Assembly: GCF_029211325.2 (NCBI RefSeq)
Contig: NZ_CP135996.1
Span: 1,178,001 to 1,242,000 of the forward strand
DNA: 64,000 nt
Direction of reading: 5' to 3'
DNA from: Caproicibacterium argilliputei
GTDB taxonomy: Bacteria; Bacillota; Clostridia; Oscillospirales; Acutalibacteraceae
Part shown: piece by piece, positions 9,402-33,962 of the stretch
Position numbering within the stretch: the first letter of the stretch is position 1
How the letters are laid out: every line of letters starts with the position of its first letter
Translations under genes and position numbers: made by a program
Notes under the pieces: generated by a model
The model's input: only the letters and a program-made list of their open reading frames with translations
What the model was told of the DNA's origin: nothing
Database searches by the model: none

Positions 9402-9428
9402 AGCAATGTGATACACAAGTGCAAAACT

Positions 9429-18950: not shown

Positions 18951-19244
18951 ATGAGTGCAATTGAAGTCACGGCGACTGCGGAAGCACTGTCTGAAAACGC
19001 GCCGTATAGCGTTGTAGATCTTTCCTTCCACTATGCCGATACGACCACGCAGGGCGGCACGGCAATTTATTATTCCGCCACCCTTTCCGACGGCGACCTG
19101 TCGGAAGACGTCCTGTTTCCGCTGGCGGTCACCGCAGGCTCCGCAATTCCTGCTGATGAGGAATTTGCTTATACGCCTTCGGCAGCTTTTACAAAAACGG
19201 TTACCGCGTCAAACGGCAAAATTTACTATACGCCCGCTTCTTAA
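18951..19244 (+). CDS. Hypothetical 97-residue Thr/Ala-rich protein
   Basis: ATG 18951 is preceded by AAAAAAGGAG and the gene is followed by a strong terminator. The protein is rich in Thr, Ser, Ala and Tyr and looks all-beta (TATAEALSENAPYSVVDLSF, GKIYYTPAS). There is no Cys, no membrane segment and no signal peptide. It is divergent from the DNRLRE-like gene and may share its function, for example a structural surface or coat role. I recognise no family. Confidence 0.7.
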   Translation: MSAIEVTATAEALSENAPYSVVDLSFHYADTTTQGGTAIYYSATLSDGDLSEDVLFPLAVTAGSAIPADEEFAYTPSAAFTKTVTASNGKIYYTPAS

Positions 19245-19261
19245 ATAGGATCGGCAGAGGT

Positions 19262-19303
19262 AAAAAAGCACTCCGCTGCAAGCGCAGAGGAGCGCTTTTT
19301 TAT
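19262..19303 (+). terminator. Intrinsic terminator
   Basis: Arms AAAAAAGCACTCCGCTGC and GCAGAGGAGCGCTTTTTT pair with two mismatches and end in a T run. It isolates the 97-residue gene from the peptide/ABC locus downstream. Confidence 0.88.
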
Positions 19304-19338
19304 GCACTGCTTTTCCCGCTTTTCATTGAAATCTAATT

Positions 19339-19551
19339 GGACTTAATGGAATTTCAAGAGAAAACCCATATCGTTTATCGCCAATTTACCATCACTTATC
19401 GTTTTGGTGTTGACTTTCGCGGGAAAAAGATGTATAAAAAATATAAAGAAATGGAAAACAAAACAATCAGTAAATTCCTATTTCTAACTTATGATTGTAA
19501 TCGTTCCGCACTTTTCAACGGCCGAAAAAGCGCAGAATGTTTTACATAAAA
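19339..19551 (+). promoter_or_regulatory. Shared promoter/leader repeat, copy 1
   Basis: First of three ~215-bp near-identical upstream regions (others at 23914 and 27774). It contains TATCGTTT at 19369 and 19397 with an extra TATCG at 19376 (21 bp from the second). Next come a promoter, TTGACT 19410-19415 with a 17-bp spacer and TATAAA 19433-19438, and a ~150-base leader with the conserved hairpin CTTTTCAACGGCCGAAAAAG (19511-19530). The direct repeats end next to the -35 box, the usual place for a response-regulator activator. The 21-bp period resembles LytTR-type sites. No such regulator is encoded nearby. Confidence 0.8.
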
Positions 19552-19583
19552 ATACGCGACGTAAATTAATTATTTTAAAAAGA

Positions 19584-20063
19584 GTGGTTTCTAATGACAA
19601 AGCACACAAGAGTTCTGGCATATTTATGGCAGCCATGATGGCGGTTTCCACCGCTGCAATGGTTCCAGTAAATGCAGCAAATACAACTGACTATGGATGG
19701 GCATTCAGCTTCAAGAATGATGTTTTCCATCAACATATATATTCATATAGTGATGCGCGGACAAAGCAGAATACTACCTCAGTTTATGTATATTTCCAAA
19801 AAGGTGACAGCAATTATATGCATTTACAAACGATGGGACGTCGAAATGGCGGAGGGTGGAATAACTGCATACTTAAAAGCAATGTTTATCTTGCAAAGGG
19901 CAATCAATATTCTGTGCAGAATAATATTTACGAAGCGCTAAAACTTAATTCTAGTGATACCGTTCAAGCAGCTCTGCGGGGTAACGCCGATGGCATGAAG
20001 GCTTTTCTAGATGCCAGTGGTGTTTGGAGTCCTGATTCGGCTAGAACTTACATTGTTGTGTAA
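19584..20063 (+). CDS. Secreted protein 1 of the triple peptide/ABC locus; start region may be frameshifted
   Basis: 159 residues if started at GTG 19584. A signal peptide is clear (HKSSGIFMAAMMAVSTAAMVPVNA, cleavage near ANT), followed by a beta-rich mature part with Tyr, Asn and Ser (YGWAFSFKNDVF, SVYVYFQKGDSNYMHL), one Cys and a C-terminal SGVWSPDS. The best ribosome binding site (AAAGAGTGG) is spaced for ATG 19594, which is in another frame and stops after 14 codons. One inserted base after its third codon would give MTKxHKSSGIF…, very like the start of protein 2 (MSKKQSKLSGI…). Possible relation to small secreted DUF2712-type proteins; function unknown, bacteriocin-like role inferred. 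Confidence 0.7.
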   Translation: MVSNDKAHKSSGIFMAAMMAVSTAAMVPVNAANTTDYGWAFSFKNDVFHQHIYSYSDARTKQNTTSVYVYFQKGDSNYMHLQTMGRRNGGGWNNCILKSNVYLAKGNQYSVQNNIYEALKLNSSDTVQAALRGNADGMKAFLDASGVWSPDSARTYIVV

Positions 20064-20080
20064 GACTTAAATTTCATATT

Positions 20081-20132
20081 CCCCGTTTGGCTTCAGAAAG
20101 CTTTTTGAAGTCAAACGGGGTTCTTGTGTCTT
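20081..20132 (+). terminator. Terminator between secreted protein 1 and its ABC genes
   Basis: CCCCGTTTGGCTTCA pairs with TTGAAGTCAAACGGGG (one bulge), followed by a T-rich tract. Partial read-through here would give much more peptide mRNA than transporter mRNA. The same arrangement is present in the other two modules. Confidence 0.85.
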
Positions 20133-20164
20133 TTGAAAAGTAAAACTTCAGGAGGATATGCTAA

Positions 20165-20896
20165 ATGAATCGTAAATATTTATCGGGTATCTCGGCGATT
20201 CTACTTACGGTTGCATTGTTGACTGGATGTACAGACCAGTCGAAAAAGATGGAGGATTTTCCACAGGAGTCTTCTGCCAGCCAGCAAACTGTATCTGGAA
20301 ATGCGGTGCAATCCTCGCAGCCGGTAAACTCAAAAATCGGCAACAATACATTGCATGATATGGGAACCTGGGTTGCGCCAGGTGTTAAAAACTATAGTTA
20401 CCGAATATTATCTGCGAAAACATACGCAACTTTAAAATCTGCCGGAATAAATGTCAAAGACTTATCACAAAACGAAAATGAAAATTGGATTGACGGCAAA
20501 AGTGAGGTTCCATTTTTGCAGGATGGAAGTCTGAAAAGTGGGAACATCCTGCTGCTTGTAAATGGAGAAGTACGACTGGATGATGCCTCCTCAGCTGATT
20601 TTTCACCCATGGTTTCTTCACTATATTTATTTCAAACCAATGAATTAGAAAATCTGGACAAAGCAAAATTTAAACCAGCTTTACTCTATAACAGTAAGGC
20701 ACCTGCCGAAAACAGGGAAAAGGAGTATTGGTATTTACCGCAGCTTGATAAAGTGGGAGCAACTGAGTCGTTTCAAGTAGGCTGGATTATCCCGAAAACT
20801 TATCTAAAAGATGGAAAGTTAGCAGTAATCATTCAAGAAAATATGGATGAGGGATATGCCATCGCTTTGAAAATGGGAGGTTCTGCCGTCAGATGA
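20165..20896 (+). CDS. Lipoprotein of ABC module 1
   Basis: 243 residues. The signal peptide ends in the lipobox LLTGC (Cys 22), so the protein is anchored on the outer face of the membrane. A Ser/Gln-rich linker follows (about 25-60), then a domain of about 180 residues (NYSYRILSAKTYATLKSAGI, LLLVNGEVRLDD) that resembles lipoproteins found beside lantibiotic-type transporters (DUF5027-like, uncertain). RBS AGGAGG. The stop overlaps the start of the first permease. Its position suggests self-immunity or capture of the secreted product. Confidence 0.75.
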   Translation: MNRKYLSGISAILLTVALLTGCTDQSKKMEDFPQESSASQQTVSGNAVQSSQPVNSKIGNNTLHDMGTWVAPGVKNYSYRILSAKTYATLKSAGINVKDLSQNENENWIDGKSEVPFLQDGSLKSGNILLLVNGEVRLDDASSADFSPMVSSLYLFQTNELENLDKAKFKPALLYNSKAPAENREKEYWYLPQLDKVGATESFQVGWIIPKTYLKDGKLAVIIQENMDEGYAIALKMGGSAVR

Positions 20897-21759
20897 AAAA
20901 CGTTTTAAAACTGGAACTTAAAAAGGCCATAAAAAATACAAATTTCTTAGTTTGTATTTTAGTTGGTAGTCTGCTGTGCATTGCCAGTGCAGTCATGCAG
21001 ATTCAAGCATATGAGCAGCATGCAGCGGTGATGGGTTCAGTACAGAAAAGCAAGTATATTATCAATACAATGCTGGAGGTAGAGACGTTTTATAACTCAT
21101 GGATTGGAATGGACGGTTTTTCGTTATTCAATTCTTTGTTTTATACGTTTATGCCACTCATTTGTACGCTGCCGTTTGCATGGAGTTATAACAAGGAAAG
21201 AAATATCTGTTATGAACATAATATGGTAATTCGCTGTGGTCGAAATCGGTACTATGCCGCGAAGTATTTAGCTACTTTCATTTCCGGTGGGCTGGCAGTA
21301 TTGCTGCCAATCGTAATCAATGTATTGTTGGTTGCAATGGTGATTCCCGGTTATACATCAACAATCGATTATGCCCTTTATATCGGCATTCAATATCCAA
21401 TGATTTGGTCGCAGATATTCTATACGAATCCTCTGCTATACGTAATTTTATATTTGCTGTTGACTTTTATCTTCTGTGGTCTGATGGCCGCTTTTGGTAT
21501 GTGTATTTCCTATTTTACGCGGAACAAAGTTGCAGCATTAATTGTTCCGTTTTTTGTGTGCAGTGCATTGGGTGTGATGGAATTACTTTTTGCTTTCAAT
21601 AAAGATGGAGTCACACTGTCTCCTGTGGTCTTCTTACATCCAACACCAACTGGAGGATACCAAAATGCGTGGTGGGTCATTTTACTGGAAGGTGGAATTC
21701 TGACAGCGTTTACGATTATCAGCACTTACATACGGGGGAGAAAGCATGAGATTTACTAG
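20893..21759 (+). CDS. ABC-2-type permease, module 1, subunit A
   Basis: 288 residues with six probable membrane helices (near 18-38, 85-105, 133-155, 180-205, 212-232, 255-275) and a long extracytoplasmic loop after the first. The N-terminus (MKNVLKLELKKAIKNTNFLVCI) is typical of ABC-2 transport permeases used for peptides and bacteriocin immunity. It is coupled to the lipoprotein by ATGA and overlaps the second permease by 14 bases. AT-rich. Confidence 0.82.
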   Translation: MKNVLKLELKKAIKNTNFLVCILVGSLLCIASAVMQIQAYEQHAAVMGSVQKSKYIINTMLEVETFYNSWIGMDGFSLFNSLFYTFMPLICTLPFAWSYNKERNICYEHNMVIRCGRNRYYAAKYLATFISGGLAVLLPIVINVLLVAMVIPGYTSTIDYALYIGIQYPMIWSQIFYTNPLLYVILYLLLTFIFCGLMAAFGMCISYFTRNKVAALIVPFFVCSALGVMELLFAFNKDGVTLSPVVFLHPTPTGGYQNAWWVILLEGGILTAFTIISTYIRGRKHEIY

Positions 21760-22603
21760 ACTGGTGTTATATGATATTCAGCAGGGGCTGTTAAAGAAAT
21801 GGAAATGGTGCATCGGCATCCTTTTAATGAATTTTGGATTTTGTTTGGCTTTTTTGATAAAGACTGTTGCTTATAATAAAGGGGCAGCTTTTGACCATAA
21901 AATTTCTCCGGTAACACCTACGTTTGGTGATGCTGTGTTTTATATTTTTGCTGGTATGAGCGAATATGTTCCGATGCCGGATCAACCGTTCAAAATGCCA
22001 TTTATATGGCTGCTTCTATACATTGTTTTGTTTTGGATGACATTGGAATATGCAAACAATGATTTGACTTCTTCCGGACAGCAGTTATTGATTCGTACGA
22101 AAGGACGTACTCTTTGGTGGCTTTCAAAGTGTGTATGGAATTTCTTTTGTGTCTTAGTGTTCTTTATCTTGGTTTGGGGTGAAACATTACTTTTTTGTAT
22201 CTTACAAGGTTTCAAAGTATCATTGTCCTTGCATGCGACTTTTTTATCTTCCATTATTGGTTCTTCTTTAGACGGCAGCGGCTACTTGTTTCCTTTGCTC
22301 CTTTGTTTATTTGTAATTACTCCGTTGGTTATGTATGCATTAAGTATGCTGCAAATGGTTTTGACTTTATGGCTGAAGCCAATTGTTAGTTATGCAATTA
22401 CCATCGGGATTCTAATTCTGTCGGCCTATATATTTTCTCCATCGTTCATCGGGAATTATGCAATGCCAGTTCGCAACGCCGCATTTGTTGAGGGGGGAGT
22501 AAACGGTACAGTGGGTTTGTGGTTTGCAGCAGCGCTAATTGTCATTTCAGTAATCATTGGAGTTTTCCGTTTTCGGAAATATGATATTTTACCAGTTGAA
22601 TAA
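21746..22603 (+). CDS. ABC-2-type permease, module 1, subunit B
   Basis: 285 residues, about six membrane helices, N-terminal MRFTRLVLYDIQQGLLKKWKW followed by a first helix. Same general design as the preceding permease, so the two probably form a heterodimeric channel energised by the ATPase at 22617. Fourteen bases lie between its stop and the ATPase start, with AAGGAG in the gap. Confidence 0.82.
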   Translation: MRFTRLVLYDIQQGLLKKWKWCIGILLMNFGFCLAFLIKTVAYNKGAAFDHKISPVTPTFGDAVFYIFAGMSEYVPMPDQPFKMPFIWLLLYIVLFWMTLEYANNDLTSSGQQLLIRTKGRTLWWLSKCVWNFFCVLVFFILVWGETLLFCILQGFKVSLSLHATFLSSIIGSSLDGSGYLFPLLLCLFVITPLVMYALSMLQMVLTLWLKPIVSYAITIGILILSAYIFSPSFIGNYAMPVRNAAFVEGGVNGTVGLWFAAALIVISVIIGVFRFRKYDILPVE

Positions 22604-22616
22604 GGAGCAAACAGTG

Positions 22617-23285
22617 ATGACAACAATTGAATGTAAGTCGGTGACGAAAGTCATTAAAAAGAATACAGTAATTGACCATATTTCTTTATCTATGCATTCT
22701 GGAAAGATATACGGCTTGCAGGGGATCAATGGTTCCGGTAAAACAATGCTTATGCGTTTGATTTCCGGATTGATTTATCCAACCGAAGGAGAAGTATTCA
22801 TTAACGGAAAATGTTTGGGCAAAGAAATAACCTTTCCGGAAAGCCTCGGTTTGCTTTTAGAAAATCCTGCATTTTTGGACAACTATACAGGGCTGCAAAA
22901 CCTTTGCCAGTTGGCATCCATCAAGCAGTTAGTAACAAAAGAACATATTCGTTCTGTTATACAGGAAGTTGGTCTGGATCCGGACGATCCTAAAAAATAT
23001 AAAAAGTATTCTTTGGGTATGAAGCAACGTATCGGAATTGCGGCGGCTTATATGGAATTGCCGGATATTGTGATTATGGATGAACCTACAAATGCCTTGG
23101 ATACAACCGGTATCGAACTTGTTAAAAATATTTTACAGGAGCAAAAAAAGCGGGATGCATTGGTAATTATATCTTGCCATGACCTGTCCATATTGCGCAG
23201 CATGTCTGACGAGATTTTCTTATTATGTGCCGGTCATGTGCAAGACCATATTGAAGCTCCGTTTGAAAAGGAAGTATCGGCATGA
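22617..23285 (+). CDS. ABC transporter ATPase, module 1
   Basis: 222 residues from ATG 22617 (RBS TAAGGAG). Walker A is GINGSGKTM near 40, the signature is SLGMKQR near 135, and Walker B IVIMDEPTNALD follows. The signature SLGMKQ instead of LSGGQ is usual for ABC-2 exporters of the bacitracin/lantibiotic immunity type. Closely related to the ATPase at 26357, which shares the same order of genes around it, so modules 1 and 2 arose by duplication or parallel capture. Confidence 0.92.
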   Translation: MTTIECKSVTKVIKKNTVIDHISLSMHSGKIYGLQGINGSGKTMLMRLISGLIYPTEGEVFINGKCLGKEITFPESLGLLLENPAFLDNYTGLQNLCQLASIKQLVTKEHIRSVIQEVGLDPDDPKKYKKYSLGMKQRIGIAAAYMELPDIVIMDEPTNALDTTGIELVKNILQEQKKRDALVIISCHDLSILRSMSDEIFLLCAGHVQDHIEAPFEKEVSA

Positions 23286-23911
23286 AGAAGAGAGTATTTG
23301 CTGTATTGGCGGTTATGCTTGCCCTCTTTGCCTGTGCCGGGCGGATTGCTTATGTCAATGGAACAGCCGAAAAAGCTCCGAAGACATCCTATTATGTAAA
23401 AGGGGAAGAATTGTCGATCGGGAAAAATATATTCGACAAATATATAGATGGCGAGCAAGCGGATGGCTATTATGTAATATTGACCAATGCCAAATTAGTG
23501 CCTATCGAAGAATTCTTGCAGGAATATAAACTTACGAAAGAGAAAGCAATGCCAAAAGCATTAAGAGCCGAAAAGGAAAACACAATGCCGGCGGTCGATT
23601 ATATTTATGAAGTAAAAATACACGTTACAAATAAAACAAATGCTCTGGTAGGGAAAGCAGGAATTAACTTAATGCGATGGGACCTTCTTGCAACAGACTT
23701 TTCCGTGCAAATACAGCAGGAATTGTATACATGCTTGAACCCTTTTGCGAAAGGTTCCTTGACCTTTTCTGTAAAGAAGGGAGCTTCGCGTGACTTTATT
23801 CTACCCTATGGTATTTGCTCCAGTGTGATTTCTCCAGAAAAGCTGAAACAACGCAATCCCTCTGTTATTATATCTGAATATCCCGTTCGAAAAATGATAA
23901 AACTTGTTTAA
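23282..23911 (+). CDS. Membrane-anchored accessory protein of module 1 (DUF5028-like)
   Basis: 209 residues. An N-terminal hydrophobic anchor (VFAVLAVMLALFACAGRIAYVNG) is followed by an extracytoplasmic domain with beta-strand pattern (YYVILTNAKLVPIEEFLQEY, YEVKIHVTNKTN). It resembles DUF5028-type proteins that accompany peptide ABC transporters. Start overlaps the ATPase stop (ATGA). The positional equivalent in module 2 is the gene at 27001. Likely part of export or immunity; no enzymatic motif seen. Confidence 0.7.
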   Translation: MKKRVFAVLAVMLALFACAGRIAYVNGTAEKAPKTSYYVKGEELSIGKNIFDKYIDGEQADGYYVILTNAKLVPIEEFLQEYKLTKEKAMPKALRAEKENTMPAVDYIYEVKIHVTNKTNALVGKAGINLMRWDLLATDFSVQIQQELYTCLNPFAKGSLTFSVKKGASRDFILPYGICSSVISPEKLKQRNPSVIISEYPVRKMIKLV

Positions 23912-23913
23912 AA

Positions 23914-24128
23914 TATTGGATTTAATGTAAATAAAAGAGAAAACCCATATCGTTTATCGCCAATTTACCATCACTTATCGTTTTGGTGTTGACTTTCGCG
24001 GGAAAAAGGTGTATAAAAAATATAAAGAAATGGAAAACAAAACAATCAGTAAATTCCTATTTTTAACTGGTGCTTGTAATCGTTCCGTACTTTTCAACGG
24101 TCGAAAAAGCGCAGAATGTTTTACATAA
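23914..24128 (+). promoter_or_regulatory. Shared promoter/leader repeat, copy 2
   Basis: Nearly identical to copy 1. TATCGTTT at 23948 and 23976, TATCG at 23955; promoter TTGACT 23989-23994, 17-bp spacer, TATAAA 24012-24017. The same leader hairpin (CTTTTCAACGGTCGAAAAAG) follows. It begins right after the stop of the module 1 accessory gene. Confidence 0.82.
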
Positions 24129-24180
24129 TATTTACGCAGTCCCAAATAAAACAACGATGTGAAAAAAGGAGAGATTCATC

Positions 24181-24597
24181 ATGAGCAAAAAGCAGTCTAA
24201 GTTATCTGGTATCGTAGCAACAGTTGGCGCAGTAGCTCTTATGGCGAGTATGGCGGCTCCGGTATTTGCATCATCCACAATAGGTTGGAGTAGAAATTTG
24301 AATCCCCTTAGTGCTGAAACGCATATTACAAGCGGACAGATTTCGAAGAATGGTGCCGGTACATACAGTGTTTGGATTGATAGTATTCAGTTTGGTAAAG
24401 CTTATTTTTGGGTTGCAGGAAGTAATGGCTCCCCAATCGGATATAATACAATCCTTCCTAAGGACAATGGCGGGACATCCACTACTTTGCGCTATTTTGC
24501 TAGACAATCACAGGGTGCGACCGTAAATCTCCGTGGCAAATCTGCTACAGGTAGCGTGTCGTTCAATTATGTAACTGGTCGTGTGAACTTTGGATAA
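24181..24597 (+). CDS. Secreted protein 2 of the triple peptide/ABC locus
   Basis: 138 residues, ATG 24181 with AAAGGAGAG upstream. Signal peptide MSKKQSKLSGIVATVGAVAL…APVFAS, cleavage after Ala about 30. The mature part of about 108 residues has no Cys and looks all-beta, rich in Gly, Ser, Thr and Asn (YSVWIDSIQFGKAYFWVAGS, ATVNLRGKSATGSVSFNYV). No double-glycine leader, so export by Sec is expected, with the ABC genes serving immunity, maturation or signalling rather than secretion. It is not clearly lactococcin-972-like. Function unknown. Confidence 0.85.
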   Translation: MSKKQSKLSGIVATVGAVALMASMAAPVFASSTIGWSRNLNPLSAETHITSGQISKNGAGTYSVWIDSIQFGKAYFWVAGSNGSPIGYNTILPKDNGGTSTTLRYFARQSQGATVNLRGKSATGSVSFNYVTGRVNFG

Positions 24598-24619
24598 TTA
24601 GATTCATATTTTTGCATCG

Positions 24620-24662
24620 AAGTAAAGAGAAACTCTGTTTTCTCTTTACTTCCTTGTTTTTT
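24620..24662 (+). terminator. Terminator between secreted protein 2 and its ABC genes
   Basis: Perfect 13-bp arms AAGTAAAGAGAAA (24620-24632) and TTTCTCTTTACTT (24639-24651), then CCTTGTTTTTT. Directly followed by the Shine-Dalgarno AAGGAGGA of the permease gene, so the terminator must be partly read through, or a weak internal promoter used. Confidence 0.9.
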
Positions 24663-24677
24663 AAGGAGGAAATTTAT

Positions 24678-25550
24678 GTGAAAAAGATATTAAAACTACA
24701 ATTCTATAATATGCTGCGGGGAAAGTCGTTCTATTTTGCATTACTGCTGATGTGCGGGTTAACAGCTGCCTTTATGCTGCAGTCCATATCTACGTTCATC
24801 AATCTGGATCAGACATTGCTGCGTCCGGCATGGTATCTATGGTATCAAAACGCGGTTCAAAGTCTTATGGACAGAGGAAGCACATCTGGTTATATGACAC
24901 TTCTTGGCATGACAGGTTTTTTGCTCCTGCCGTTTGTGGCGGTATTGGGCTATGGTGCAAGCTACTACGATGGCTTGAAAACCGGAACGGTGAAAAGTGT
25001 CTTATCAAGAACCTCGCAAAAAGCGTACTTTGTGTCTGGGGCAATCGTTACCTTTACCGGTGCGTTCCTCGTGATTCTGATTCCATACGTGTTTGAACAA
25101 ATGATTCTGCTGATTCTATGTGCAGGGGCACCACAGCAAAATGCAGCGGCGTTGTCTCCGGTTATGGATAATTGGGGGTATTGGCTGGATGTACCGGAGT
25201 TCCTTTGGTCGCTGCAAATGAATCATCCGGTTTTATTTGACCTGCTTTGCTGCTTGAATCCTGCCATGGTTGGCGGCGCTTTTGCAGTCCTCACATATTC
25301 TCTCTCTTTATTCATACATAAAAATCGTTTTTTAGTGCTCACGCTGCCTGGTATTCTGCTTTGGTTTTTGGCGGACTATGTGATTGGTATGACGAAGCTA
25401 ACGGGAAAGGTAACCACGCTTTCTTCCCTTGTACAATTTTCATCTATGGATACCTATGTTCTTTGGCCGGTTTATGTGCTTGTCCTGCTGCTCATTAGCG
25501 ATATTTTAATATATTTCAAGTGTCATGTAAAAAAGGATGTGCTGGAATGA
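24678..25550 (+). CDS. ABC-2-type permease, module 2, subunit A
   Basis: 290 residues from GTG 24678; the ATG two bases before is followed by a stop, and AAGGAGGA lies at the right distance. About six membrane helices with the family-type start VKKILKLQFYNMLRGKSFYFALLL. It overlaps the next permease by 4 bases (ATGA). Counterpart of the gene at 20893. Confidence 0.82.
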   Translation: MKKILKLQFYNMLRGKSFYFALLLMCGLTAAFMLQSISTFINLDQTLLRPAWYLWYQNAVQSLMDRGSTSGYMTLLGMTGFLLLPFVAVLGYGASYYDGLKTGTVKSVLSRTSQKAYFVSGAIVTFTGAFLVILIPYVFEQMILLILCAGAPQQNAAALSPVMDNWGYWLDVPEFLWSLQMNHPVLFDLLCCLNPAMVGGAFAVLTYSLSLFIHKNRFLVLTLPGILLWFLADYVIGMTKLTGKVTTLSSLVQFSSMDTYVLWPVYVLVLLLISDILIYFKCHVKKDVLE

Positions 25551-26356
25551 AGCAAAAGAAAGTATTGCGTTGCTTTTTGTACTGTGTCCTTGCAATTTTG
25601 GCTTTTTTTCTGCTTTTGTATCAACAGGGGAGCATGCCGCTGGATCCGCATATGGATACCTATTTTTTGCAGGTGTTTGGCGGTGTGCGGGTAGATACCA
25701 CAGATACTTCGGTGATTCTGAGCGTTTTCTTTTATAACATCCCGTGGATTTTGTTTTTGTATGTCTTTGCATCGCTTTTCCAAAAAGACTTTGAGGTACA
25801 GTATGTGTATGTGTTTACACGCATTGGCAGTAAGCAGAGATGGCTGCGGCAAAAGACAGCCGAACTGTTTTTGCACATTTGTATTTCGTGGGGCCTGCTG
25901 TTTGTGGCGGCCTTTGCGTTTGGCGCGGGGTTTGGGTTCGCCCTGCGCGGGTCGGCGCTGCTTTATATAGAGATTTTTGTGTTGCAGGTGCTTGGACTGT
26001 TTACGCTGTCCTTTGCACAAAATCTGCTTTCTATGAAAATGGGAATTACACAGTCCTATATCCTTGCACTTTGCTGTTATGCGCTGGCAATTATAGCAGG
26101 TGTTCTGCTGTATCAAAACGCCAATGTAACAGGTTGGTTGCTTCCGTTGTTTCCAACGGCGGGACAGATGCTGCTTTGGCACGCGGATGCGGCAGTTTTG
26201 CCGGAAACGCAGGCTGTATTTTTTGCGGGTGCCACTGGGTTTTCGGTTTGGAAAAGCATTGCGGTAGAGTTCTTATACATTGCTGTACTATATGTGGGCA
26301 CAGCATTATACCTGCAAAAAGCGGATTTAATTGATTTTGTCAAGGAGGAAAACTGA
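25547..26356 (+). CDS. ABC-2-type permease, module 2, subunit B
   Basis: 269 residues with six or more hydrophobic helices (VLAILAFFLLLYQQ, ILFLYVFASLF, GLLFVAAFAFGAGFGFAL and others). Small Arg/Lys-rich cytoplasmic loop FTRIGSKQRWLRQK, typical of ABC-2 permeases. Stop is directly followed by the ATPase ATG. More GC-rich than the module 1 permeases. Confidence 0.8.
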   Translation: MKQKKVLRCFLYCVLAILAFFLLLYQQGSMPLDPHMDTYFLQVFGGVRVDTTDTSVILSVFFYNIPWILFLYVFASLFQKDFEVQYVYVFTRIGSKQRWLRQKTAELFLHICISWGLLFVAAFAFGAGFGFALRGSALLYIEIFVLQVLGLFTLSFAQNLLSMKMGITQSYILALCCYALAIIAGVLLYQNANVTGWLLPLFPTAGQMLLWHADAAVLPETQAVFFAGATGFSVWKSIAVEFLYIAVLYVGTALYLQKADLIDFVKEEN

Positions 26357-27004
26357 ATGTTAGCAGTTGATATGCATGAATATACAAAAATTATAAAAAA
26401 GCGTGAAATCCTGAAGAATGTCAATCTGCAGTTAGAGGCAGGCGGCATCTATGGACTGTATGGGCATAACGGTTCTGGTAAGTCCATGCTGATGCGCGCA
26501 ATTTCCGGATTGATTATGCCAACCAGCGGGTCGGTCGCAGTCTTCGGCAAAGAGATTGGGAAAGAAGCTCCTTTTCCTGATGACATGGGTTTAATCATTG
26601 AGAATGTGGGGTTTTGGCCGCATTACACCGGATTTGAAAATTTAAAGGCGCTTGCTTCTATTCGCGGCAAACTGACAGATGGGGAAATACGGGATGTGAT
26701 TGCCCGCGTGGGGCTTGACCCAACGGATAAGCGAACCTATCGAAAATATTCATTGGGAATGAAACAGCGGCTCGGAATCGCGCAGGCGATTATGGAACAG
26801 CCGAAACTATTGCTGCTGGATGAACCGACCAACGCACTGGACGAAGATGGTGTGGCACTGGTACGAAAAATCATTCGAGAAGAAAACGACCGCGGTGCAA
26901 CTGTCATTTTGGCAAGTCATAATCAGGAGGATTTAACCAGCTTGTGCGCGAAGTTTTATAAAATGAACGATGGCGTGCTCAAAGAGGAGGCGCTGCAGGC
27001 ATGA
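26357..27004 (+). CDS. ABC transporter ATPase, module 2
   Basis: 215 residues, RBS AAGGAGG. Walker A GHNGSGKSM near 36, signature SLGMKQR near 130, Walker B LLLLDEPTNALD near 150. Strongly similar in pattern to the module 1 ATPase (both have YGL-x-G-x-NGSGK, MLMRxISGLI and KKYSLGMKQR-type sequences). Start follows the permease stop with no gap; its stop overlaps the next start. Confidence 0.92.
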   Translation: MLAVDMHEYTKIIKKREILKNVNLQLEAGGIYGLYGHNGSGKSMLMRAISGLIMPTSGSVAVFGKEIGKEAPFPDDMGLIIENVGFWPHYTGFENLKALASIRGKLTDGEIRDVIARVGLDPTDKRTYRKYSLGMKQRLGIAQAIMEQPKLLLLDEPTNALDEDGVALVRKIIREENDRGATVILASHNQEDLTSLCAKFYKMNDGVLKEEALQA

Positions 27005-27675
27005 AAAAGAAATGGTATCTGATACCTGCCGCGCTTTTGCTTGTATGTGTCGTTTTGGCTTTTGCCGTACGAACCACTTACACGGACACGACAGCGCAGA
27101 GTGGACAGTTTGCCTATTCCTGTTCCACTTCCTTACAGCCGGTGCTGGATTCTCTGAAAGTTCAAAAAGTATCTGACATTCCTGAAAATCTGGTGCAAAA
27201 TGCAGATGCAATTGTAAGGGCAAAGTTTGACGGCGACCGCACTTTCAGTACCAACGCATTTTTTTCGACCGTCAAGGTGACGCAGGTTTACAAGGGTTCG
27301 CAGAGCTTAAAGGGAACGGATTTGAGAATTGTTGAGGCAGTCGATTATTTTTCTTTTGTAAAGACTTTGAATGCGGGAGACAGTTTTTATATCCCTCTGC
27401 AAAAGGGAGATGACTATTTGCTGATTCTAAAAAAAGTACCGTTTCAGTCTTCAAGAAAGTTGACGGATTTTCAAAAAAATCAATATTATCCTTACACCCA
27501 GAGTGCGTTTGGCGCGTTCCGTATGGCGCAGGATAAACAAACGAAATTGTTCGGTAAAAATGACAAACGCACGCTGGATACTCTGCAGGGTTATGATGTC
27601 CCTGCAAGTGACCAGAAGTCGTTGGATGCTTATTATCAGGTAAAAGAAAAAGTGATGCAGCTTTTAAAAATATAG
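27001..27675 (+). CDS. Membrane-anchored accessory protein of module 2
   Basis: 224 residues. N-terminal anchor (WYLIPAALLLVCVVLAFAV) and an external domain with the stretch IVRAKFDGDRTFSTNAFFSTVKVTQVYKGSQSLKGTDLRIVEAVDYF, which resembles beta-rich extracellular domains that read AxVxxVYKG. It occupies the place of the DUF5028-like gene in module 1 but the sequence differs. ATGA overlap with the ATPase. Function unknown; immunity or scaffold suggested by position. Confidence 0.7.
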   Translation: MKKKWYLIPAALLLVCVVLAFAVRTTYTDTTAQSGQFAYSCSTSLQPVLDSLKVQKVSDIPENLVQNADAIVRAKFDGDRTFSTNAFFSTVKVTQVYKGSQSLKGTDLRIVEAVDYFSFVKTLNAGDSFYIPLQKGDDYLLILKKVPFQSSRKLTDFQKNQYYPYTQSAFGAFRMAQDKQTKLFGKNDKRTLDTLQGYDVPASDQKSLDAYYQVKEKVMQLLKI

Positions 27676-27749
27676 GAATTATCAATGCGAATATAGAAGG
27701 ATATCGTGGGTTACAGAGCGTCGTCTGTGGATAAGGATGTGGGATGATT

Positions 27750-27772
27750 AATTCCAATTGTAAATTGGAATT
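27750..27772 (+). repeat. Perfect inverted repeat at the end of module 2
   Basis: AATTCCAATT and AATTGGAATT around GTA. There is no T run after it, so it is a weak terminator or a protein-binding dyad just upstream of the copy 3 promoter region. Confidence 0.55.
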
Positions 27773-27773
27773 A

Positions 27774-27989
27774 TATTGGACTAAATGTAAATAAAAGAGA
27801 AAACCCATATCGTTTATCGCCAATTTACCATCACTTATCGTTTTGGTGTTGACTTTTGTGGAAAAAAGATGTATAATATTATTAAGAAATAGGAAATAAA
27901 TCAAGTCACAAGAAACTATTTCTAACTTGTGTTTGTAAATATTCTGTACTTTTCAACGGCCGAAAAAGCATAGAATGTTTTACATAAAA
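27774..27989 (+). promoter_or_regulatory. Shared promoter/leader repeat, copy 3
   Basis: Third copy. The upstream 70 bp are the same as in copies 1 and 2. The promoter is TTGACT 27849-27854, 17-bp spacer, TATAAT 27872-27877, a better -10 than in the other two. The early leader differs by small insertions and deletions, while the hairpin block CTTTTCAACGGCCGAAAAAG and the AGAATGTTTTACATA end are kept. Conservation of the boxes but not of a reading frame shows regulatory rather than coding constraint. Confidence 0.82.
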
Positions 27990-28044
27990 TGTTTAAAGAA
28001 GCGGTACATGAAATCAAATCAAAATTTTGAAAGGGGAATTTATC

Positions 28045-28449
28045 ATGAAAAAAATCAGTAAAACAGTTGTTGCCATTATGGCAGCGGGACTCGTAACTTG
28101 CGCTGCAAGCCTTCCTGTGTTCGCATCACAGTATAAAAATTACAATATGTCGACTTCTAGTACAACATCAGGTCCTCATAAGTATATGAATAACAGTCCA
28201 ACACACTATCAGATACAGTATGATAACACAATTAGTGGTGCTAATAGTGGAAGAGATTCCGCAGCGGTCAGTTGTTATAAAGATGAATGGACCTATGCCA
28301 CTTTGAAGCCGGATGATCAGACACATCTTGGTAATGGCAGATGGTACCCTTGGTGGGCAAGCTGCGAAGCTGGAGATTACAACTTGGTTTTGACTGTGAA
28401 AGCAAGTGGCAGAACGCTTACCGCAACTGGGACAATACAGAATTTTTAG
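28045..28449 (+). CDS. Secreted protein 3 of the triple peptide/ABC locus
   Basis: 134 residues, ATG 28045 after GAAAGGGGA. Signal peptide MKKISKTVVAIMAAGLVTCA…LPVFAS; mature part about 106 residues, Tyr/Asn/Ser-rich start (YKNYNMSTSSTTSGPHKYMN), two Cys (SCYKDEW, ASCEAGD) that could form a disulfide, and a C-terminal beta strand pair (YNLVLTVKASGRTLTATGTIQNF). Followed by a terminator and then a MacB-like ATPase plus large FtsX permease, the gene set typical of lactococcin-972-like loci, although the peptide itself is not a clear member. Confidence 0.85.
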   Translation: MKKISKTVVAIMAAGLVTCAASLPVFASQYKNYNMSTSSTTSGPHKYMNNSPTHYQIQYDNTISGANSGRDSAAVSCYKDEWTYATLKPDDQTHLGNGRWYPWWASCEAGDYNLVLTVKASGRTLTATGTIQNF

Positions 28450-28524
28450 TTGCATCGTTCGTTAAAATAAGATGAATTGTCAAGACAAGTGCGTCAGTTT
28501 ATGAAAACAATTCACATTGTTTTG

Positions 28525-28564
28525 CACGGAGAATTGCAAATCTGCGGTTCTCCGTGATTTTATT
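28525..28564 (+). terminator. Terminator between secreted protein 3 and its ABC genes
   Basis: CACGGAGAA (28525-28533) pairs with TTCTCCGTG (28548-28556), then ATTTTATT. It lies in the same relative place as in modules 1 and 2. Confidence 0.85.
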
Positions 28565-28591
28565 CGCAAAAAATGATTGGAGGCAGAAATT

Positions 28592-29263
28592 GTGCAGCTG
28601 TTTACGGAAAATATATATCGGGACTATGGGGACGGGGAAACGGTGGTTCATGCCCTGCTTCCAACAACGCTAACCTTTCAACCCGGGGAGCAAGCGGCTA
28701 TCATTGGAGCAAGCGGTTCCGGAAAAAGCACGCTATTAAACTTGCTGGGTGGTTTGGACACGCCGACTGGCGGAATGGTACGCTATGGGGAAGAGAATCT
28801 GTATCAGATGAAAGCGGACGACCTCGCGCGCTTTCGCAGGCGGCACATCGGTTTTGTTTTTCAGGCATACAACTTGATTCCGGAGTTGACCGCCGAAGAA
28901 AACACTCTGGTGCCGCTTTTGTTGGATGGGCAGAAGAAGGAAGAGCCTTTCTTTACAGAGGTTACAGAAGCACTTGGTTTGCAAAATCGCATGACACACT
29001 ATCCGGATGCACTTTCTGGGGGACAGCAGCAGCGTGTCGCCATCGCACGGGCGCTGATTCATCATCCAGATGTGCTGCTGTGTGATGAACCGACCGGCAA
29101 TTTAGACAGTAAAAACAGTCAAGAAGTCATGGACTATTTATTTACGCTTTCGGAGAAATGGAGCATTACCCTTTTGGTGGTGACACATGATGCAAAAATA
29201 GCGCAGCGCTTTCCGCGTATCCTACATATTGAGGACGGACAGGTGGGCGGTGATCTGTCATGA
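28592..29263 (+). CDS. MacB/LolD-type ABC ATPase, module 3
   Basis: 223 residues from GTG 28592 (TTGGAGG eight bases upstream). Walker A GASGSGKST near 38, Q-loop FVFQAYNLIPELTAEEN, canonical signature LSGGQQQRVAIARAL, Walker B LLCDEPTGNLDS. It pairs with the FtsX permease that starts in its stop codon. MacB-type systems move peptides or transduce force across the membrane and often confer bacteriocin immunity. Confidence 0.95.
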   Translation: MQLFTENIYRDYGDGETVVHALLPTTLTFQPGEQAAIIGASGSGKSTLLNLLGGLDTPTGGMVRYGEENLYQMKADDLARFRRRHIGFVFQAYNLIPELTAEENTLVPLLLDGQKKEEPFFTEVTEALGLQNRMTHYPDALSGGQQQRVAIARALIHHPDVLLCDEPTGNLDSKNSQEVMDYLFTLSEKWSITLLVVTHDAKIAQRFPRILHIEDGQVGGDLS

Positions 29264-31848
29264 GCGGAAACAGATTTTTGACGAAGCAGTACATGAAGCA
29301 TCATCGCCGCCAGCAACTGGGGGCCATACTGATTCTCACGTTATTTGCTTCCGCAGTTTTGAGCATGTTGTTTTTAACGCAGTGCTTTCACGCTACAAAT
29401 CAGCAGGCGGCCTATAACCACTATGGTTCCTTTGGCGGCCAGACAATTTTTGCCGATGCAAATAAAGTGGAGCAGAATCAGAAAAAGTTGGCGGCAGAGG
29501 GAGACGGCATCGTTTCCGTGCAGGCACAGGTGGAAACCAGTGACGCGACGGATGCTGTGTATATAGGCTATATGGACGAAAATGCACGAAAGCTGCGTGC
29601 GGTGCGTGTAAAAGAGGGCAGCTTTCCAACCAGTGCACAAGAAATTGCATTGGATCAGGATGCGTACTATCGTCTGAATTTAAATGTCAAGGTCGGTGAT
29701 AAGGTTACATTAAAAACAGAAGCAAATGGCAAGACCCAATCAGAAACTTATACGCTGACTGGCATTTTATATGATTACTGTGACCATTGGAAAAAAATTG
29801 TGCAGGATATTTTGGTGCAATTCAAAAACGTATCCTCTACAGATCCAAAGCTGCCGTCTGTTTTGATCGGTGCAGTTCCGGAGAAAACGATCGCTACGCA
29901 TCTCCTTTATCAAACGGAGGTGGAACGACCGGAATATGGTAGCACTTTTATATACAATATGGAGCTTCACAACGTAGAATACTACACAGAACAGCTTGAC
30001 CGCTCTACCGCAAATGTTACCATGTTTATTGGTGGTTTCTTTTTGGTCTTAACCGTGTTTGGCACTTGGGTGTTGGCACACGTGACTCTGCAGAGTCGCG
30101 AAAAATTCACACGAACGCTGCAGAAAATTGGCTTGACACGCAAGGAACTGCGTACCCAGTTTTTGATGCAGGCAATGCTGTTGACGGGCATTGCGTGGAT
30201 TTTCAGTATCCCCCTTTCTTTCGGCATTTTAGCAGTTGTACTGGCTCTTTCCTCAGCATGGGGTTCGCCTCTTCTGTTTTCAGTTTCGTGGTGGATGCCG
30301 CTTATTTCATTAGGGTTGCTGCTCACGGTAAGTATTCTTATCTTTTTACTGCAGGCGCGCAGTATGCAAAAAGGCAGGAGTAAAAGCAAAGAGAAAAAGC
30401 AGAAAAAAGCCAAGGCGGCACAAACGTTTACACAGTTATGGTCGAAACTTTATCGAAAGTCCCGGTATGGCCGTATGACGGCGCTGACGGTGCTTTGTTT
30501 TGGCTGTGTGCTGATTTTAGAGTTTGGTGCATTTTCGGGGGAAGCGGCTGCTGCCACACATTATTATGGTGTAGTGGATGCGTTGGGAACCATAGATTAT
30601 CAGAGTTCCGTAGAGCAGGGCGCACAATATCCAAGCCTAATGGGAGCCAATCTGCCAAGAGACGCAGGGATGTCTGCAAAAAAACTTGCGCAGCTGCAAA
30701 ATAGTTCTGACTTAGATGTGAAGTGTGCGTATATTAATAATTATCTTTTACCTGCATTCATTCGGGTTCAGAAGGGACATTCCACACCGCTTTTGGATAA
30801 ACTTATGAAAGAGCATACCTATGAAAAAGATTATAATTCATCGAATGACGCGCAATGTGCGAAAGAAAATAAACAAGCAAAACAAGATTTCGGATATACG
30901 GATCAGGATATTCTCATTACCAAGCCAGAAATCATTGCGGTTGACCGTGAGACTATGAGAAAACTTCTGCAGGCCGCGCACCGAACCTGTACAGAAACGG
31001 AATTGGATGAATTTGTACAGGGCAAGAAAGTCTATTCCATGGGAACAGATTTTCAAAAGGGCGATTCTTTTACAATCTCAATGGCAATCGTACCGGTGGG
31101 CATAACCGAACAAAGCATCCATGGAAAAGGGAGAAATAAAGATTTTCGGGTTACTGTGCAGGGGAACTTTACGCTGCCGCAAAAATTATTTGGCAGTCCA
31201 GTCGCATTTCCCTACGGAACGCAACAGGGGAATCCTTCCATTGCAATATCGGCTGAGGCTGTGATGGCTGCAGATCCACAGCTAGGGTATTATAGTGTAT
31301 GGGCGAACCGTGCGCATCCAAATGACGCTGCGTCCAGTGCAAGGGCAAGCGATCTGATTCACAGAGTCACAACTTCCTCAAAAGGAATGGGGATAATTGA
31401 CAGAGAGGAGAGCATCGCTGCATGGCAGCAAAAAGCGCAGCAGGAAAAGTGGCCGGTGTATGCGCTGACGCTTGTGCTGGTTGCAGCGACGCTGGCCGCA
31501 GTTACGGCGCTGAACCGAATCAAACTGAAATCCAACCTGCACAGTTACGCGCTGCTGTGTGCAGCAGGCATGGAGCCCGGTCGGCTTCAAAGAAATCTGG
31601 TCAAAGACAGCATAAAGAGTATTGGCGTCGGGTGCATATTCGGTTTTTGTGCAGCAACGGTTTTCTGCGTACTGCTCATACAGCATTACTGGTATGTCCC
31701 TTTGCTGAATATTTGGCTGAGTGCCGTACTGCCGCTTACACTGCTGTGCATCGTTGCGATTTTGTGCATAACGGTTGTTTCCAGCACCGCAACAGTGCGT
31801 AAAATGTTAAAGAGCAGCATTTTAGCTTCTTTATCGGAACAATATTAA
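29260..31848 (+). CDS. Large FtsX/MacB-type ABC permease, module 3
   Basis: 862 residues. First helix near 20-45, an extracytoplasmic domain (about 45-245), a three-helix FtsX block (about 250-370), a basic cytoplasmic linker (SMQKGRSKSKEKKQKKAKAA), another helix near 405-425, a second external domain and a final FtsX block (about 730-850). The two-FtsX layout and size fit the bacteriocin-associated membrane proteins that accompany lactococcin-972-type peptides and BceB-like detoxification permeases. Start overlaps the ATPase stop. Ends at a strong terminator. Confidence 0.88.
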   Translation: MSGNRFLTKQYMKHHRRQQLGAILILTLFASAVLSMLFLTQCFHATNQQAAYNHYGSFGGQTIFADANKVEQNQKKLAAEGDGIVSVQAQVETSDATDAVYIGYMDENARKLRAVRVKEGSFPTSAQEIALDQDAYYRLNLNVKVGDKVTLKTEANGKTQSETYTLTGILYDYCDHWKKIVQDILVQFKNVSSTDPKLPSVLIGAVPEKTIATHLLYQTEVERPEYGSTFIYNMELHNVEYYTEQLDRSTANVTMFIGGFFLVLTVFGTWVLAHVTLQSREKFTRTLQKIGLTRKELRTQFLMQAMLLTGIAWIFSIPLSFGILAVVLALSSAWGSPLLFSVSWWMPLISLGLLLTVSILIFLLQARSMQKGRSKSKEKKQKKAKAAQTFTQLWSKLYRKSRYGRMTALTVLCFGCVLILEFGAFSGEAAAATHYYGVVDALGTIDYQSSVEQGAQYPSLMGANLPRDAGMSAKKLAQLQNSSDLDVKCAYINNYLLPAFIRVQKGHSTPLLDKLMKEHTYEKDYNSSNDAQCAKENKQAKQDFGYTDQDILITKPEIIAVDRETMRKLLQAAHRTCTETELDEFVQGKKVYSMGTDFQKGDSFTISMAIVPVGITEQSIHGKGRNKDFRVTVQGNFTLPQKLFGSPVAFPYGTQQGNPSIAISAEAVMAADPQLGYYSVWANRAHPNDAASSARASDLIHRVTTSSKGMGIIDREESIAAWQQKAQQEKWPVYALTLVLVAATLAAVTALNRIKLKSNLHSYALLCAAGMEPGRLQRNLVKDSIKSIGVGCIFGFCAATVFCVLLIQHYWYVPLLNIWLSAVLPLTLLCIVAILCITVVSSTATVRKMLKSSILASLSEQY

Positions 31849-31857
31849 AACGCAAAA

Positions 31858-31908
31858 GAAAAGACGGCAGAAGTGTCATGTGAAGTGACACACTGCTGTC
31901 TTTTTCTG
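31858..31908. terminator. Bidirectional terminator
   Basis: AAAAGACGGCAG…GTGTCA pairs with TGACAC…CTGCTGTCTTTTT. It separates the peptide/ABC locus from the convergent CAP gene. Confidence 0.88.
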
Positions 31909-31918
31909 TGTAAGAGAG

Positions 31919-32713
31919 TTATCCAATGAACTGCTGTGTCCAAATGAACTGTCCATTCGCATTTTTTGCAACGCCGACGCCAATTTGCGTAAAGGAGGCG
32001 TTCAAAATATTTTTGCGGTGGCCTTCAGAATTCATCCAGCCATTCATGACCTGTTCCGGAGAGGATTGTCCCATTGCGATATTTTCGCCCGCTGTGCGAT
32101 ACGAAATTCCGAACTGCTTCATCATTTCAAACGGTGTGCCGTAGGTCGGGGAGGTGTGGTCAAAGTAATTCAGCTTTGCCATATCTTCCGATTTCAGTGT
32201 GGCGGTGTTTGTCAGCTGTGTGTTGACAGACAGGGCGCTAAGCCCGTAGGATGCCCGCTGCTGGTTAACTAACTCGACCACTTCCTCTTGAAAGGCAGCG
32301 TAACCTGTTGTGGAAGTCTGGGAGGATGCTGCGCTGGAAGCAGAGGAGGAATCTGTATGGGAGACACTGCTTGCAGAAGAGGAAGCACTGGCTGCTGCTG
32401 ACGACGGGCGGGAGTTGCTGCTTGGTGTGCTGCTGGGCTTGGCGGGTTTTGAGGTCAGCGGGCAGTTAGAAGAAACCGATTCTTTAGAGCTGGCAGAGTT
32501 GGAAGCAGCAGACGCAGAAGACGTACTTGCTGCTTTCGAAGAAGCGGATTTGGAAGCTGGCAGGACCTCCGTGCAGGAGGAGGTGCTTGTTTGGGCTGCG
32601 GCAGAACTGGCAACTGACGCAGCTGGTTGTTCTGCAGACTGCGAAAGGGCGGTGCCGCCGGCAATTAGGCTGGCGAGCAAGGATGCGAGAATCGCGAACA
32701 GTTTAAAATGCAT
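31919..32713 (-). CDS. Secreted CAP-domain (SCP/PR1-like) protein
   Basis: 264 residues. Signal peptide (LFAILASLLASLIAGGTALS), a long low-complexity Ser/Ala linker (about 25-145), then a CAP domain of about 120 residues with the family motifs VVELVNQQRASYGL, HTSPTYGTPFEMM, GENIAMG and GWMNSEGHRKNIL. YkwD-like proteins of this type are secreted by spore-formers; their role is unclear. The Ser-rich stretch may attach the domain to the wall or be glycosylated. Start ATG 32713 has AAGGAGA upstream on the minus strand. Confidence 0.9.
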   Translation of the reverse strand: MHFKLFAILASLLASLIAGGTALSQSAEQPAASVASSAAAQTSTSSCTEVLPASKSASSKAASTSSASAASNSASSKESVSSNCPLTSKPAKPSSTPSSNSRPSSAAASASSSASSVSHTDSSSASSAASSQTSTTGYAAFQEEVVELVNQQRASYGLSALSVNTQLTNTATLKSEDMAKLNYFDHTSPTYGTPFEMMKQFGISYRTAGENIAMGQSSPEQVMNGWMNSEGHRKNILNASFTQIGVGVAKNANGQFIWTQQFIG

Positions 32714-33909: not shown

Positions 33910-33962
33910 AAAATGCGGCTCCGGCAGCTTATGAACAAGCGTGCCGGAGCCGCATTGTGTTT
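33910..33962. terminator. Bidirectional terminator
   Basis: AATGCGGCTCCGGCA and TGCCGGAGCCGCATT form a perfect 15-bp stem, with A and T runs outside. It lies between the convergent HD and lipase genes. Confidence 0.92.

What the first reader, a model, noticed from the sequence alone, without database searches (positions are those of the whole stretch)
19339..31848. Three consecutive secreted-protein/ABC modules under the same promoter
Three units in a row share one plan: a conserved ~215-bp promoter/leader, a small protein with a Sec-type signal peptide (159, 138 and 134 residues), a terminator, then ABC genes. The three mature proteins are unlike one another, and none carries a double-glycine leader. 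Modules 1 and 2 have ABC-2 permease pairs, related ATPases and a membrane-anchored accessory protein (module 1 adds a lipoprotein). Module 3 has a MacB-like pair with an 862-residue FtsX permease. ABC plus small secreted peptide is known for lactococcin-972-like loci, but three different products on a duplicated control region look new. Possible roles are multi-component bacteriocin with separate immunity pumps, or surface effectors.
Basis: partly seen in the sequence, partly recalled or inferred. Interest (0 to 1): 0.78.

Follow-up and report, generated by a model that had tools for sequence, protein, structure and literature searches.

The report
Quorum-controlled family of secreted bacteriocin-like modules
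Three neighbouring gene sets in a clostridial bacterium each pair one small secreted protein with its own membrane pump and share a control region with the cell-density (agr) signal gene, as does a known type of bacteriocin in a related species, which suggests an interchangeable arsenal of antibacterial proteins.

Summary
The shared leader has a direct repeat of 21-bp period exactly 8 bp before a -35 element. Genome-wide (up to 3 mismatches) the repeat occurs five times: before agrD of an agrACDB locus, before the three window modules, and before a fourth module of the same plan at 888 kb. A covarying 5'-UTR hairpin follows, and a strong terminator separates each secreted gene from its ABC genes. 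The modules are most likely an agr quorum-sensing regulon. In the nearest relative the same box and hairpin precede a lactococcin-972 locus whose signal peptide is about 80% identical in DNA to module-4-type genes while the mature parts are unrelated, and the module-2 cassette lies directly behind a second agrBD. Each secreted family keeps its own transporter type in other genera (module 1: Bacillota, Actinomycetota, two plasmids; remote DUF2712 kin, predicted beta-sandwich). Best reading: Sec-exported bacteriocin-like proteins with cognate ABC self-protection under agr control. The regulon is strongly supported; toxicity is inferred. New variant of the lactococcin-972 plan.

The parts
19336..19549 (+). 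leader 1: direct repeat 19370-19401, -35 19410-19415, -10 19433-19438, UTR hairpin 19494-19549
19584..20063 (+). module 1 secreted protein (DUF2712-like family), long frame; start region apparently frame-shifted
20081..20120 (+). terminator/attenuator hairpin 1
20165..20896 (+). module 1 lipoprotein, DUF5027 (PF16430, 30 bits, cut-off 25)
20893..21759 (+). module 1 ABC-2-type permease 1
21746..22603 (+). module 1 ABC-2-type permease 2 (DUF2705-like, E 4.7e-4, below cut-off)
22617..23285 (+). module 1 ABC ATPase (best NCBIfam TIGR03740 lantibiotic protection, below cut-off); start inferred, ORF from 22557
23282..23911 (+). module 1 membrane-anchored DUF5028 protein (PF16431, 34.9 bits, cut-off 29.9)
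23915..24128 (+). leader 2: repeat 23949-23980, -35 23989-23994, -10 24012-24017, hairpin 24073-24128
24181..24597 (+). module 2 secreted protein, 138 aa
24619..24652 (+). terminator/attenuator hairpin 2
24612..25550 (+). module 2 permease 1 (ORF; true start probably ~24678, behind the hairpin)
   Evidence: orthologue
25520..26356 (+). module 2 permease 2
   Evidence: orthologue
26357..27004 (+). module 2 ABC ATPase (TIGR03740-like, below cut-off)
27001..27675 (+). module 2 membrane-anchored accessory protein
27775..27987 (+). leader 3: repeat 27809-27840, -35 27849-27854, -10 27872-27877, hairpin 27932-27987
28045..28449 (+). module 3 secreted protein, 134 aa
28525..28556 (+). terminator/attenuator hairpin 3
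28577..29263 (+). module 3 MacB/LolD-like ATPase
29260..31848 (+). module 3 FtsX-type permease, 862 aa

Best explanation
The three modules are part of a small agr quorum-sensing regulon. AgrB processes AgrD into a cyclic peptide; AgrC and the LytTR regulator AgrA respond; AgrA binds the direct repeat and raises transcription from the adjacent sigma-A promoter at agrD and at four secreted-protein/ABC modules, three of them in the window. Each module transcript carries a common 5' hairpin, a highly expressed small protein exported by Sec, and, past a leaky terminator, lower amounts of a dedicated ABC transporter. The secreted proteins are most likely bacteriocin-like proteins that act outside the cell on related bacteria, each ABC set (with lipoprotein or anchored helper) giving self-protection, as proposed for lactococcin 972. 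Shown: the anatomy, the shared box and hairpin, their restriction to these loci in the scans made, conservation of each cassette. Inferred: AgrA binding, induction by density, leaky termination, antibacterial action, immunity role of the pumps.
For: Five boxes genome-wide: agrD, mod1, mod2, mod3, mod4. agr genes by family: AgrD TIGR04223 38.5 bits (cut-off 19), AgrB PF04647, LytTR+receiver, GHKL kinase. 8 of 8 boxes in two species lie exactly 8 bp before a TTGnnn hexamer. Relative G001: boxes at agrD (by reading), at a mod4-like module, and at a PF09683 gene (37.4 bits, cut-off 22) followed by a 7TM protein (TIGR01654 206.9 bits, cut-off 189.35) and ATPase (TIGR03608 256, cut-off 254.85); its mod2 cassette lies directly behind a second AgrB (PF04647) and an agrD-like peptide, with a LytTR regulator. 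The UTR hairpin model finds 10 accepted places in 11 genomes; 7 are its own training sequences, the 3 independent ones (L059, L060, L029) also precede secreted-protein genes. Signal-peptide DNA shared (69 and 74 of 87), mature parts not (21 and 23 of the next 87) between the lactococcin-972 gene and mod4-type genes. ATPases of modules 1, 2 and 4 score best against lantibiotic-protection TIGR03740. Precedents: mediterrocin (PMC12345188); Fsr/LytTR-controlled Sec-secreted enterocin O16 (PMC5454873).
Against: No secreted protein of the window or of mod4 matches a bacteriocin family. TIGR03740 matches are well below cut-off (167-191 of 309.75 bits). In other genera related cassettes sit beside sigma factors (L066, L070/L037, L087, L098) or an OmpR-type regulator (L064) rather than agr, which fits envelope stress too. 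The module 1 secreted gene seems broken, and G001's lactococcin-972 gene has an in-frame stop. The mod1-family fold matches PDB only near chance level. The triple tandem is not conserved, and the hairpin was not found in 24 cassette loci outside the genus. The consensus promoter scan lists only leader 3; leaders 1 and 2 have TATAAA, which its rule excludes. AgrA binding was not tested.
Confidence: 0.62

Rival explanations
1. Envelope-defence modules: the secreted proteins bind or decoy foreign peptides or antibiotics at the cell surface and the ABC sets expel or sense them; agr (or sigma factors elsewhere) times this defence.
For: Sigma factor or OmpR-type regulators beside cassettes in other genera; MacB-like and LanFEG-like transporters also serve resistance (recalled); the predicted beta-sandwich resembles carbohydrate-binding modules as much as toxins.
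Against: A lactococcin-972-family gene shares leader and signal peptide in G001; the small protein stands ahead of a terminator; cassettes are patchy and sometimes plasmid-borne.
Confidence: 0.2
2. Surface or community effectors: secreted binding proteins (aggregation, matrix, glycan binding) with ABC machinery for maturation or recycling, no killing.
For: High-confidence beta-sandwich of the module 1 family (pLDDT 91.6), with PirA, XepA, CBM and GOLD domains as remote matches; agr commonly controls exoproteins (recalled).
Against: Sec-type signal peptides need no dedicated exporter; one protein with one pump set across phyla; the shared leader with a lactococcin-972 gene.
Confidence: 0.12
3. 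A multi-component bacteriocin whose three products act together.
For: Same promoter, adjacent in the window; L095 has a fragment read as module-2-like upstream of its module-3-type cassette.
Against: Cassettes occur without the others: mod2 behind agr2 in G001, mod1-type secreted protein plus ABC in 10 loci, mod3 type in L096; each has its own transporter type.
Confidence: 0.04

Closest known systems
Lactococcin 972 family loci (PF09683 + TIGR01654/DUF1430 7TM + TIGR03608 ATPase), incl. mediterrocin
   Same: Small Sec-exported protein followed by a membrane protein and ATPase proposed for immunity; a locus over all three cut-offs sits in the same agr regulon of relative G001, and its 7TM/ATPase pair, just under the TIGR cut-offs, remains in the own genome.
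   Different: Window secreted proteins lack PF09683; transporters are two permeases plus ATPase with lipoprotein/anchored helpers, or a MacB-like pair, not the 7TM type; several unlike products under one leader; agr control.
agr/Fsr quorum-sensing regulons (S. aureus agr, E. faecalis Fsr with enterocin O16)
   Same: AgrABCD complete; LytTR-type direct repeats before the promoters; a Sec-secreted antimicrobial protein as target in Fsr (PMC5454873).
   Different: By its boxes the regulon consists only of agrD and secreted-protein/ABC modules; the modules share one 5'-UTR hairpin; no RNAIII-like gene was looked for.
LanFEG/LanI lantibiotic self-protection
   Same: Two permeases plus ATPase (best NCBIfam hit TIGR03740) and a lipoprotein in modules 1 and 4.
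   Different: Scores far below cut-off; product is a Sec-secreted protein of about 100-130 residues.
DUF2712 (PF10916) with DUF2705 permeases
   Same: 5 of 11 members of the module 1 family match PF10916, best E 0.002; the one shown in full covers most of the profile; permease 2 matches DUF2705 weakly.
   Different: Matches are weak; no paper naming these families was found.

Membership tests
Lactococcin 972 bacteriocins | mature domain PF09683 | tested here: not met
   No hit at E<=1 for mod1, mod2, mod3, mod4; the G001 sister gene L026 hits at 37.4 bits
Lactococcin 972 bacteriocins | 7TM TIGR01654/DUF1430 partner | tested here: not met
   None in the window modules; L026 pair over cut-off, L008 pair under the TIGR cut-offs, DUF1430 over
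Lactococcin 972 bacteriocins | Sec signal peptide without double-glycine leader | tested here: met
   By reading mod2 and mod3, no predictor run; module 1 start is disrupted
Lactococcin 972 bacteriocins | antibacterial activity, lipid II target | not testable with these tools
   needs bench work
agr quorum-sensing system | AgrB, AgrD, AgrC (GHKL), AgrA (LytTR) together | tested here: met
   L007 3458-6386:
agr quorum-sensing system | LytTR-type direct repeat at target promoters | tested here: met
   repeat of 21-bp period, 5 sites in genome, 8 of 8 with the same geometry; the spacing rule for AgrA is recalled
agr quorum-sensing system | AgrA binds these sites | not testable with these tools
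   inferred only
LanFEG lantibiotic protection | ATPase over TIGR03740 cut-off | tested here: not met
   167.5, 167.1 and 190.7 bits against 309.75
LanFEG lantibiotic protection | lanthipeptide precursor and synthetase nearby | not tested
   only selected ORFs around the modules were scanned
DUF2712 (module 1 secreted protein) | PF10916 match over 22 bits | tested here: inconclusive
   5 of 11 family members match weakly, best E 0.002 (its bits not shown); the window protein itself no match at E<=1
DUF5027/DUF5028 cassette | PF16430 lipoprotein and PF16431 anchored protein with permease pair and ATPase | tested here: met
   both over cut-off in module 1

The most novel reading that the evidence does not exclude
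An interchangeable arsenal: one agr-controlled promoter, UTR hairpin and signal peptide is reused as a launching platform while unrelated mature proteins, each with its own ABC self-protection, are swapped in behind it. That would make at least three new families of Sec-secreted bacteriocins (types of modules 1, 2 and 3), the first found across Bacillota and Actinomycetota and partly on plasmids.
Probability: 0.5. Interest if true: 0.76.

Novelty: new variant of a known kind. Interest (0 to 1): 0.64.

Why it matters
If true, several uncharacterised secreted-protein families (including kin of DUF2712) and their DUF5027/DUF5028/ABC neighbours gain a testable role, genome miners gain a handle (AgrA box plus UTR hairpin, or the cassette permease) for unmodified Sec-secreted bacteriocins that the family models used here miss, and agr in Clostridia is tied to bacterial competition.

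Tried and rejected
Rfam scan of the window: nothing at gathering threshold. PDB sequence searches: none for the module 1 family at E<=10; module 2 gave 11 nanobody/Ig-type chains at E>=0.076, regarded as chance. Viral contigs: no relatives for module 2 or the module 1 family. Module 3 protein in 72,556 plasmid records: no match. Single-sequence model of module 2 useless (pLDDT 34). Profile comparison of the module 1 family with the mod4 pair aligned mainly signal peptides. Pairwise blastp gave short weak local matches of mod4-type proteins with module 2 (27 residues, E 8e-4 and 0.007) and module 3 (E 0.007), composition correction off; too little to claim a common fold, but not excluded. Lactococcin 972 did not appear in the structure list, which excludes nothing. 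A global-alignment attempt at the signal-peptide boundary was uninformative (shuffled baseline 75%) and was replaced by ungapped counts. A LytTR repeat before the Natronobacillus cassette was not convincing, and no agrB or agrD was read there. The G008 hairpin hit (E 0.0095) is a terminator behind an aldolase-like gene (by reading), rejected. One search lists 21 rows at E<=1: 9 at E<=1e-3, one at 0.0045 (L029), the G008 row, four on the opposite strand of an element already counted, and six weak ones (E 0.235-0.616) not examined; in that search only 150 first-look candidates per genome were scored (of 1433 in the own genome), so weaker copies may be missed. L029 was dropped from the hairpin alignment before the model was built, because its hairpin is shorter. 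The L027 and L028 half-boxes have no module behind them: L027 is a decayed agr locus, L028 unrelated genes. Weak module 2 hits other than L082 (L083-L086) and module 3 hits L091-L094 were not accepted; L083, L084 and L086 were read, L085 and L091-L094 were not. The agrD-like peptide of L062 gave no NCBIfam match at E<=1e-6, a limit that may be too strict for 49 residues; it is named from reading.
Full report
Observation. The window is part of a single-contig genome of 2.90 Mb. Three leaders start at 19336, 23915 and 27775. Against the first they are 94% and 65% identical without gaps and 94% and 85% by BLAST. Behind each lies a small ORF with a signal peptide, then a strong hairpin terminator, then ABC genes. 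The three terminators have the longest stems among 22 terminator-like sites in 19200-32000. Module 1 carries a DUF5027 lipoprotein, two permeases, an ATPase and a DUF5028 protein, the two DUF proteins over their cut-offs. Module 2 has two permeases, an ATPase and an anchored protein; module 3 a MacB/LolD-like ATPase and an 862-aa FtsX permease. Correction: the ATG with a Shine-Dalgarno in module 1 (19594) stops after 14 codons, and the 159-residue frame starts at a GTG without one. A related copy on the minus strand of L008 has the intact signal-peptide frame. The gene looks frame-shifted, or the assembly is wrong there.

Control region. The leader has three parts. First, a direct repeat ATCxxTTATCG with 21-bp period. 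A scan of the whole genome with up to three mismatches found five sites and none for the reversed control pattern: before agrD at 417.5 kb, before a fourth module at 888 kb (secreted protein, lipoprotein, two permeases, ATPase), and before the three window modules. Next to agrD are AgrB (PF04647), a LytTR response regulator and a GHKL kinase; AgrD matches TIGR04223 over its cut-off. Second, a sigma-A type promoter: in 8 of 8 sites of two species a TTGnnn hexamer begins exactly 8 bp after the repeat. The consensus scanner lists only leader 3, because its rule wants T at the end of the second hexamer and leaders 1 and 2 have TATAAA. Third, a 56-nt hairpin in the 5' UTR. On seven sequences (three of them the close window copies; L029 left out) its 18 pairs score 0.294 for covariation against 0.180 in shuffles (1 of 500 as high) with 10 cells changed on both sides (2 of 500), but the number of pairs with such a change, 5, is reached by 67 of 500 shuffles. 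Single-sequence fold z-scores are modest (-2.3, -1.2, -3.3). A covariance model searched in 11 genomes of the genus gave 9 hits at E<=1e-3 and one at 0.0045 that I accept. Seven are the model's own sequences; the three others (L059, L060, L029) also precede secreted-protein genes, L060's being a remnant. Only 150 candidates per genome were scored. The model hits none of 24 cassette loci outside the genus, two of which are held twice (the 25th source, L062, repeats a known hit), so it seems local to this genus.

The regulon in relatives. Of 11 genomes in the genus (7 at least 90% complete), only the own one and G001 have the boxes at up to three mismatches. G001's three boxes precede agrD, a mod4-like module, and a gene whose product matches Lactococcin_972 (PF09683, 37.4 bits, cut-off 22) but is interrupted by an in-frame stop. 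It is followed by a 738-aa TIGR01654 protein (206.9 bits, cut-off 189.35) and a TIGR03608 ATPase (256, cut-off 254.85), so the locus passes all three family cut-offs. The own genome keeps a corresponding pair (174.6 and 252.7 bits, both just under cut-off) with the hairpin but without box or secreted gene. In G001 the module 2 orthologue (72% identical secreted protein, same gene order) sits directly behind a second AgrB (PF04647, 99.7 bits) and an agrD-like peptide; a LytTR regulator is upstream and the kinase frame is split by what reads as an insertion element. G001's copy of the MacB-like pair lies behind the mod4-like module instead. So the cassettes move, and the tandem of three is not conserved. 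In G006 agr has decayed.

Swapping. The lactococcin-972-family gene L026 shares 69 and 74 of 87 signal-peptide bases, without gaps, with mod4 and L029, but only 21 and 23 of the next 87, which is chance level. Leader, hairpin and signal peptide are thus common while the mature proteins differ. Between G000 and G001 the module 2 secreted protein is under purifying selection (dN/dS 0.24, mature part 70% identical) and is the fastest gene of its cassette (ATPase 0.03, 96%). In module 4 the secreted protein (37%) and lipoprotein (33%) diverge together while the ATPase stays at 86%, with synonymous sites saturated. This fits a cognate pair but is one comparison.

Mechanism. The best account is an agr regulon for Sec-exported bacteriocin-like proteins with cognate ABC self-protection. 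Shown by sequence: common promoter with agrD, its restriction to these loci in the scan, a lactococcin-972 locus in the same regulon of a relative, conserved cassettes. Inferred: AgrA binding, density dependence, killing, immunity. The immunity role rests on lactococcin 972, where orf2-orf3 are described as putative immunity ABC genes and lipid II as target (PMC4055356, passages), and on mediterrocin, an 89-residue clostridial member with predicted Sec signal, DUF1430 protein and ABC gene, shown active by purification and gene disruption (PMC12345188, abstract and passages; [quoted passage not shown] Control of a Sec-secreted bacteriocin by an agr-like LytTR system is reviewed for enterocin O16 (PMC5454873, passages). 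Against this: other genera place related cassettes beside sigma factors or an OmpR-type regulator, which allows an envelope-defence role, and none of the window proteins matches a known toxin family.

Novelty. Searches for DUF2712, DUF5027, DUF5028 and DUF2705 found no paper. 'Accessory gene regulator' with 'lactococcin 972' gave three papers; the one read in passages lists both as separate clusters of a Staphylococcus and in those passages does not link them (PMC11161930); the other two were seen in the listing only. A wider search (lactococcin 972, agr, ABC transporter) gave 45 papers, 20 listed, of which PMC11161930 and PMC4055356 were opened. The library is partial, so this is not proof of absence. 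The plan is a variant of the lactococcin-972 type: unlike products, other transporters, one agr platform. The genome belongs to the same GTDB family as Candidatus Heritagella, since L034 (same family) and L075 (titled so) carry the same sequence; the family name Acutalibacteraceae is recalled.

Noticed in passing
L008 3100-4840 (minus), G000 ~443.1-444.8 kb: Remains of a further module: UTR hairpin, signal peptide like module 1 run into an ABC ATPase remnant plus a permease; divergent from the orphaned lactococcin-972-type 7TM/ATPase pair.
   Followed up: partly
L062 reverse strand, frames 5658-10246 (G001 ~1.64 Mb): Second agr locus with LytTR regulator and AgrB plus agrD-like peptide; its kinase frame is split by what reads as an insertion element, and a short gene that reads like a mobilisation protein lies next to it.
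   Followed up: partly
L027 3143-5300 (G006): Decayed agr: agrA intact, agrC truncated, agrBD not seen, repeat still present (by reading).
   Followed up: partly
L060 3024-3721 (G006): UTR hairpin before a short secreted-protein remnant followed by frames that read like a transposase.
   Followed up: partly
L037, L087, L098 (and L035): Sigma factor (by Pfam in L037 and L087, by annotation in L098) upstream of module 1- or 2-type cassettes; L035 and L087 also show an anti-sigma-like gene and an extra secreted protein by reading.
   Followed up: partly
window 31919-32713 (-) and 33962-35296 (-): Secreted CAP/YkwD-family protein with a Ser/Ala-rich linker and a lipase related to staphylococcal secreted lipases beside the modules; neither has an AgrA box (only five in the genome).
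   Followed up: no
window 18951-19241: 97-aa protein without any Pfam or NCBIfam match at E<=1 just before module 1.
   Followed up: no
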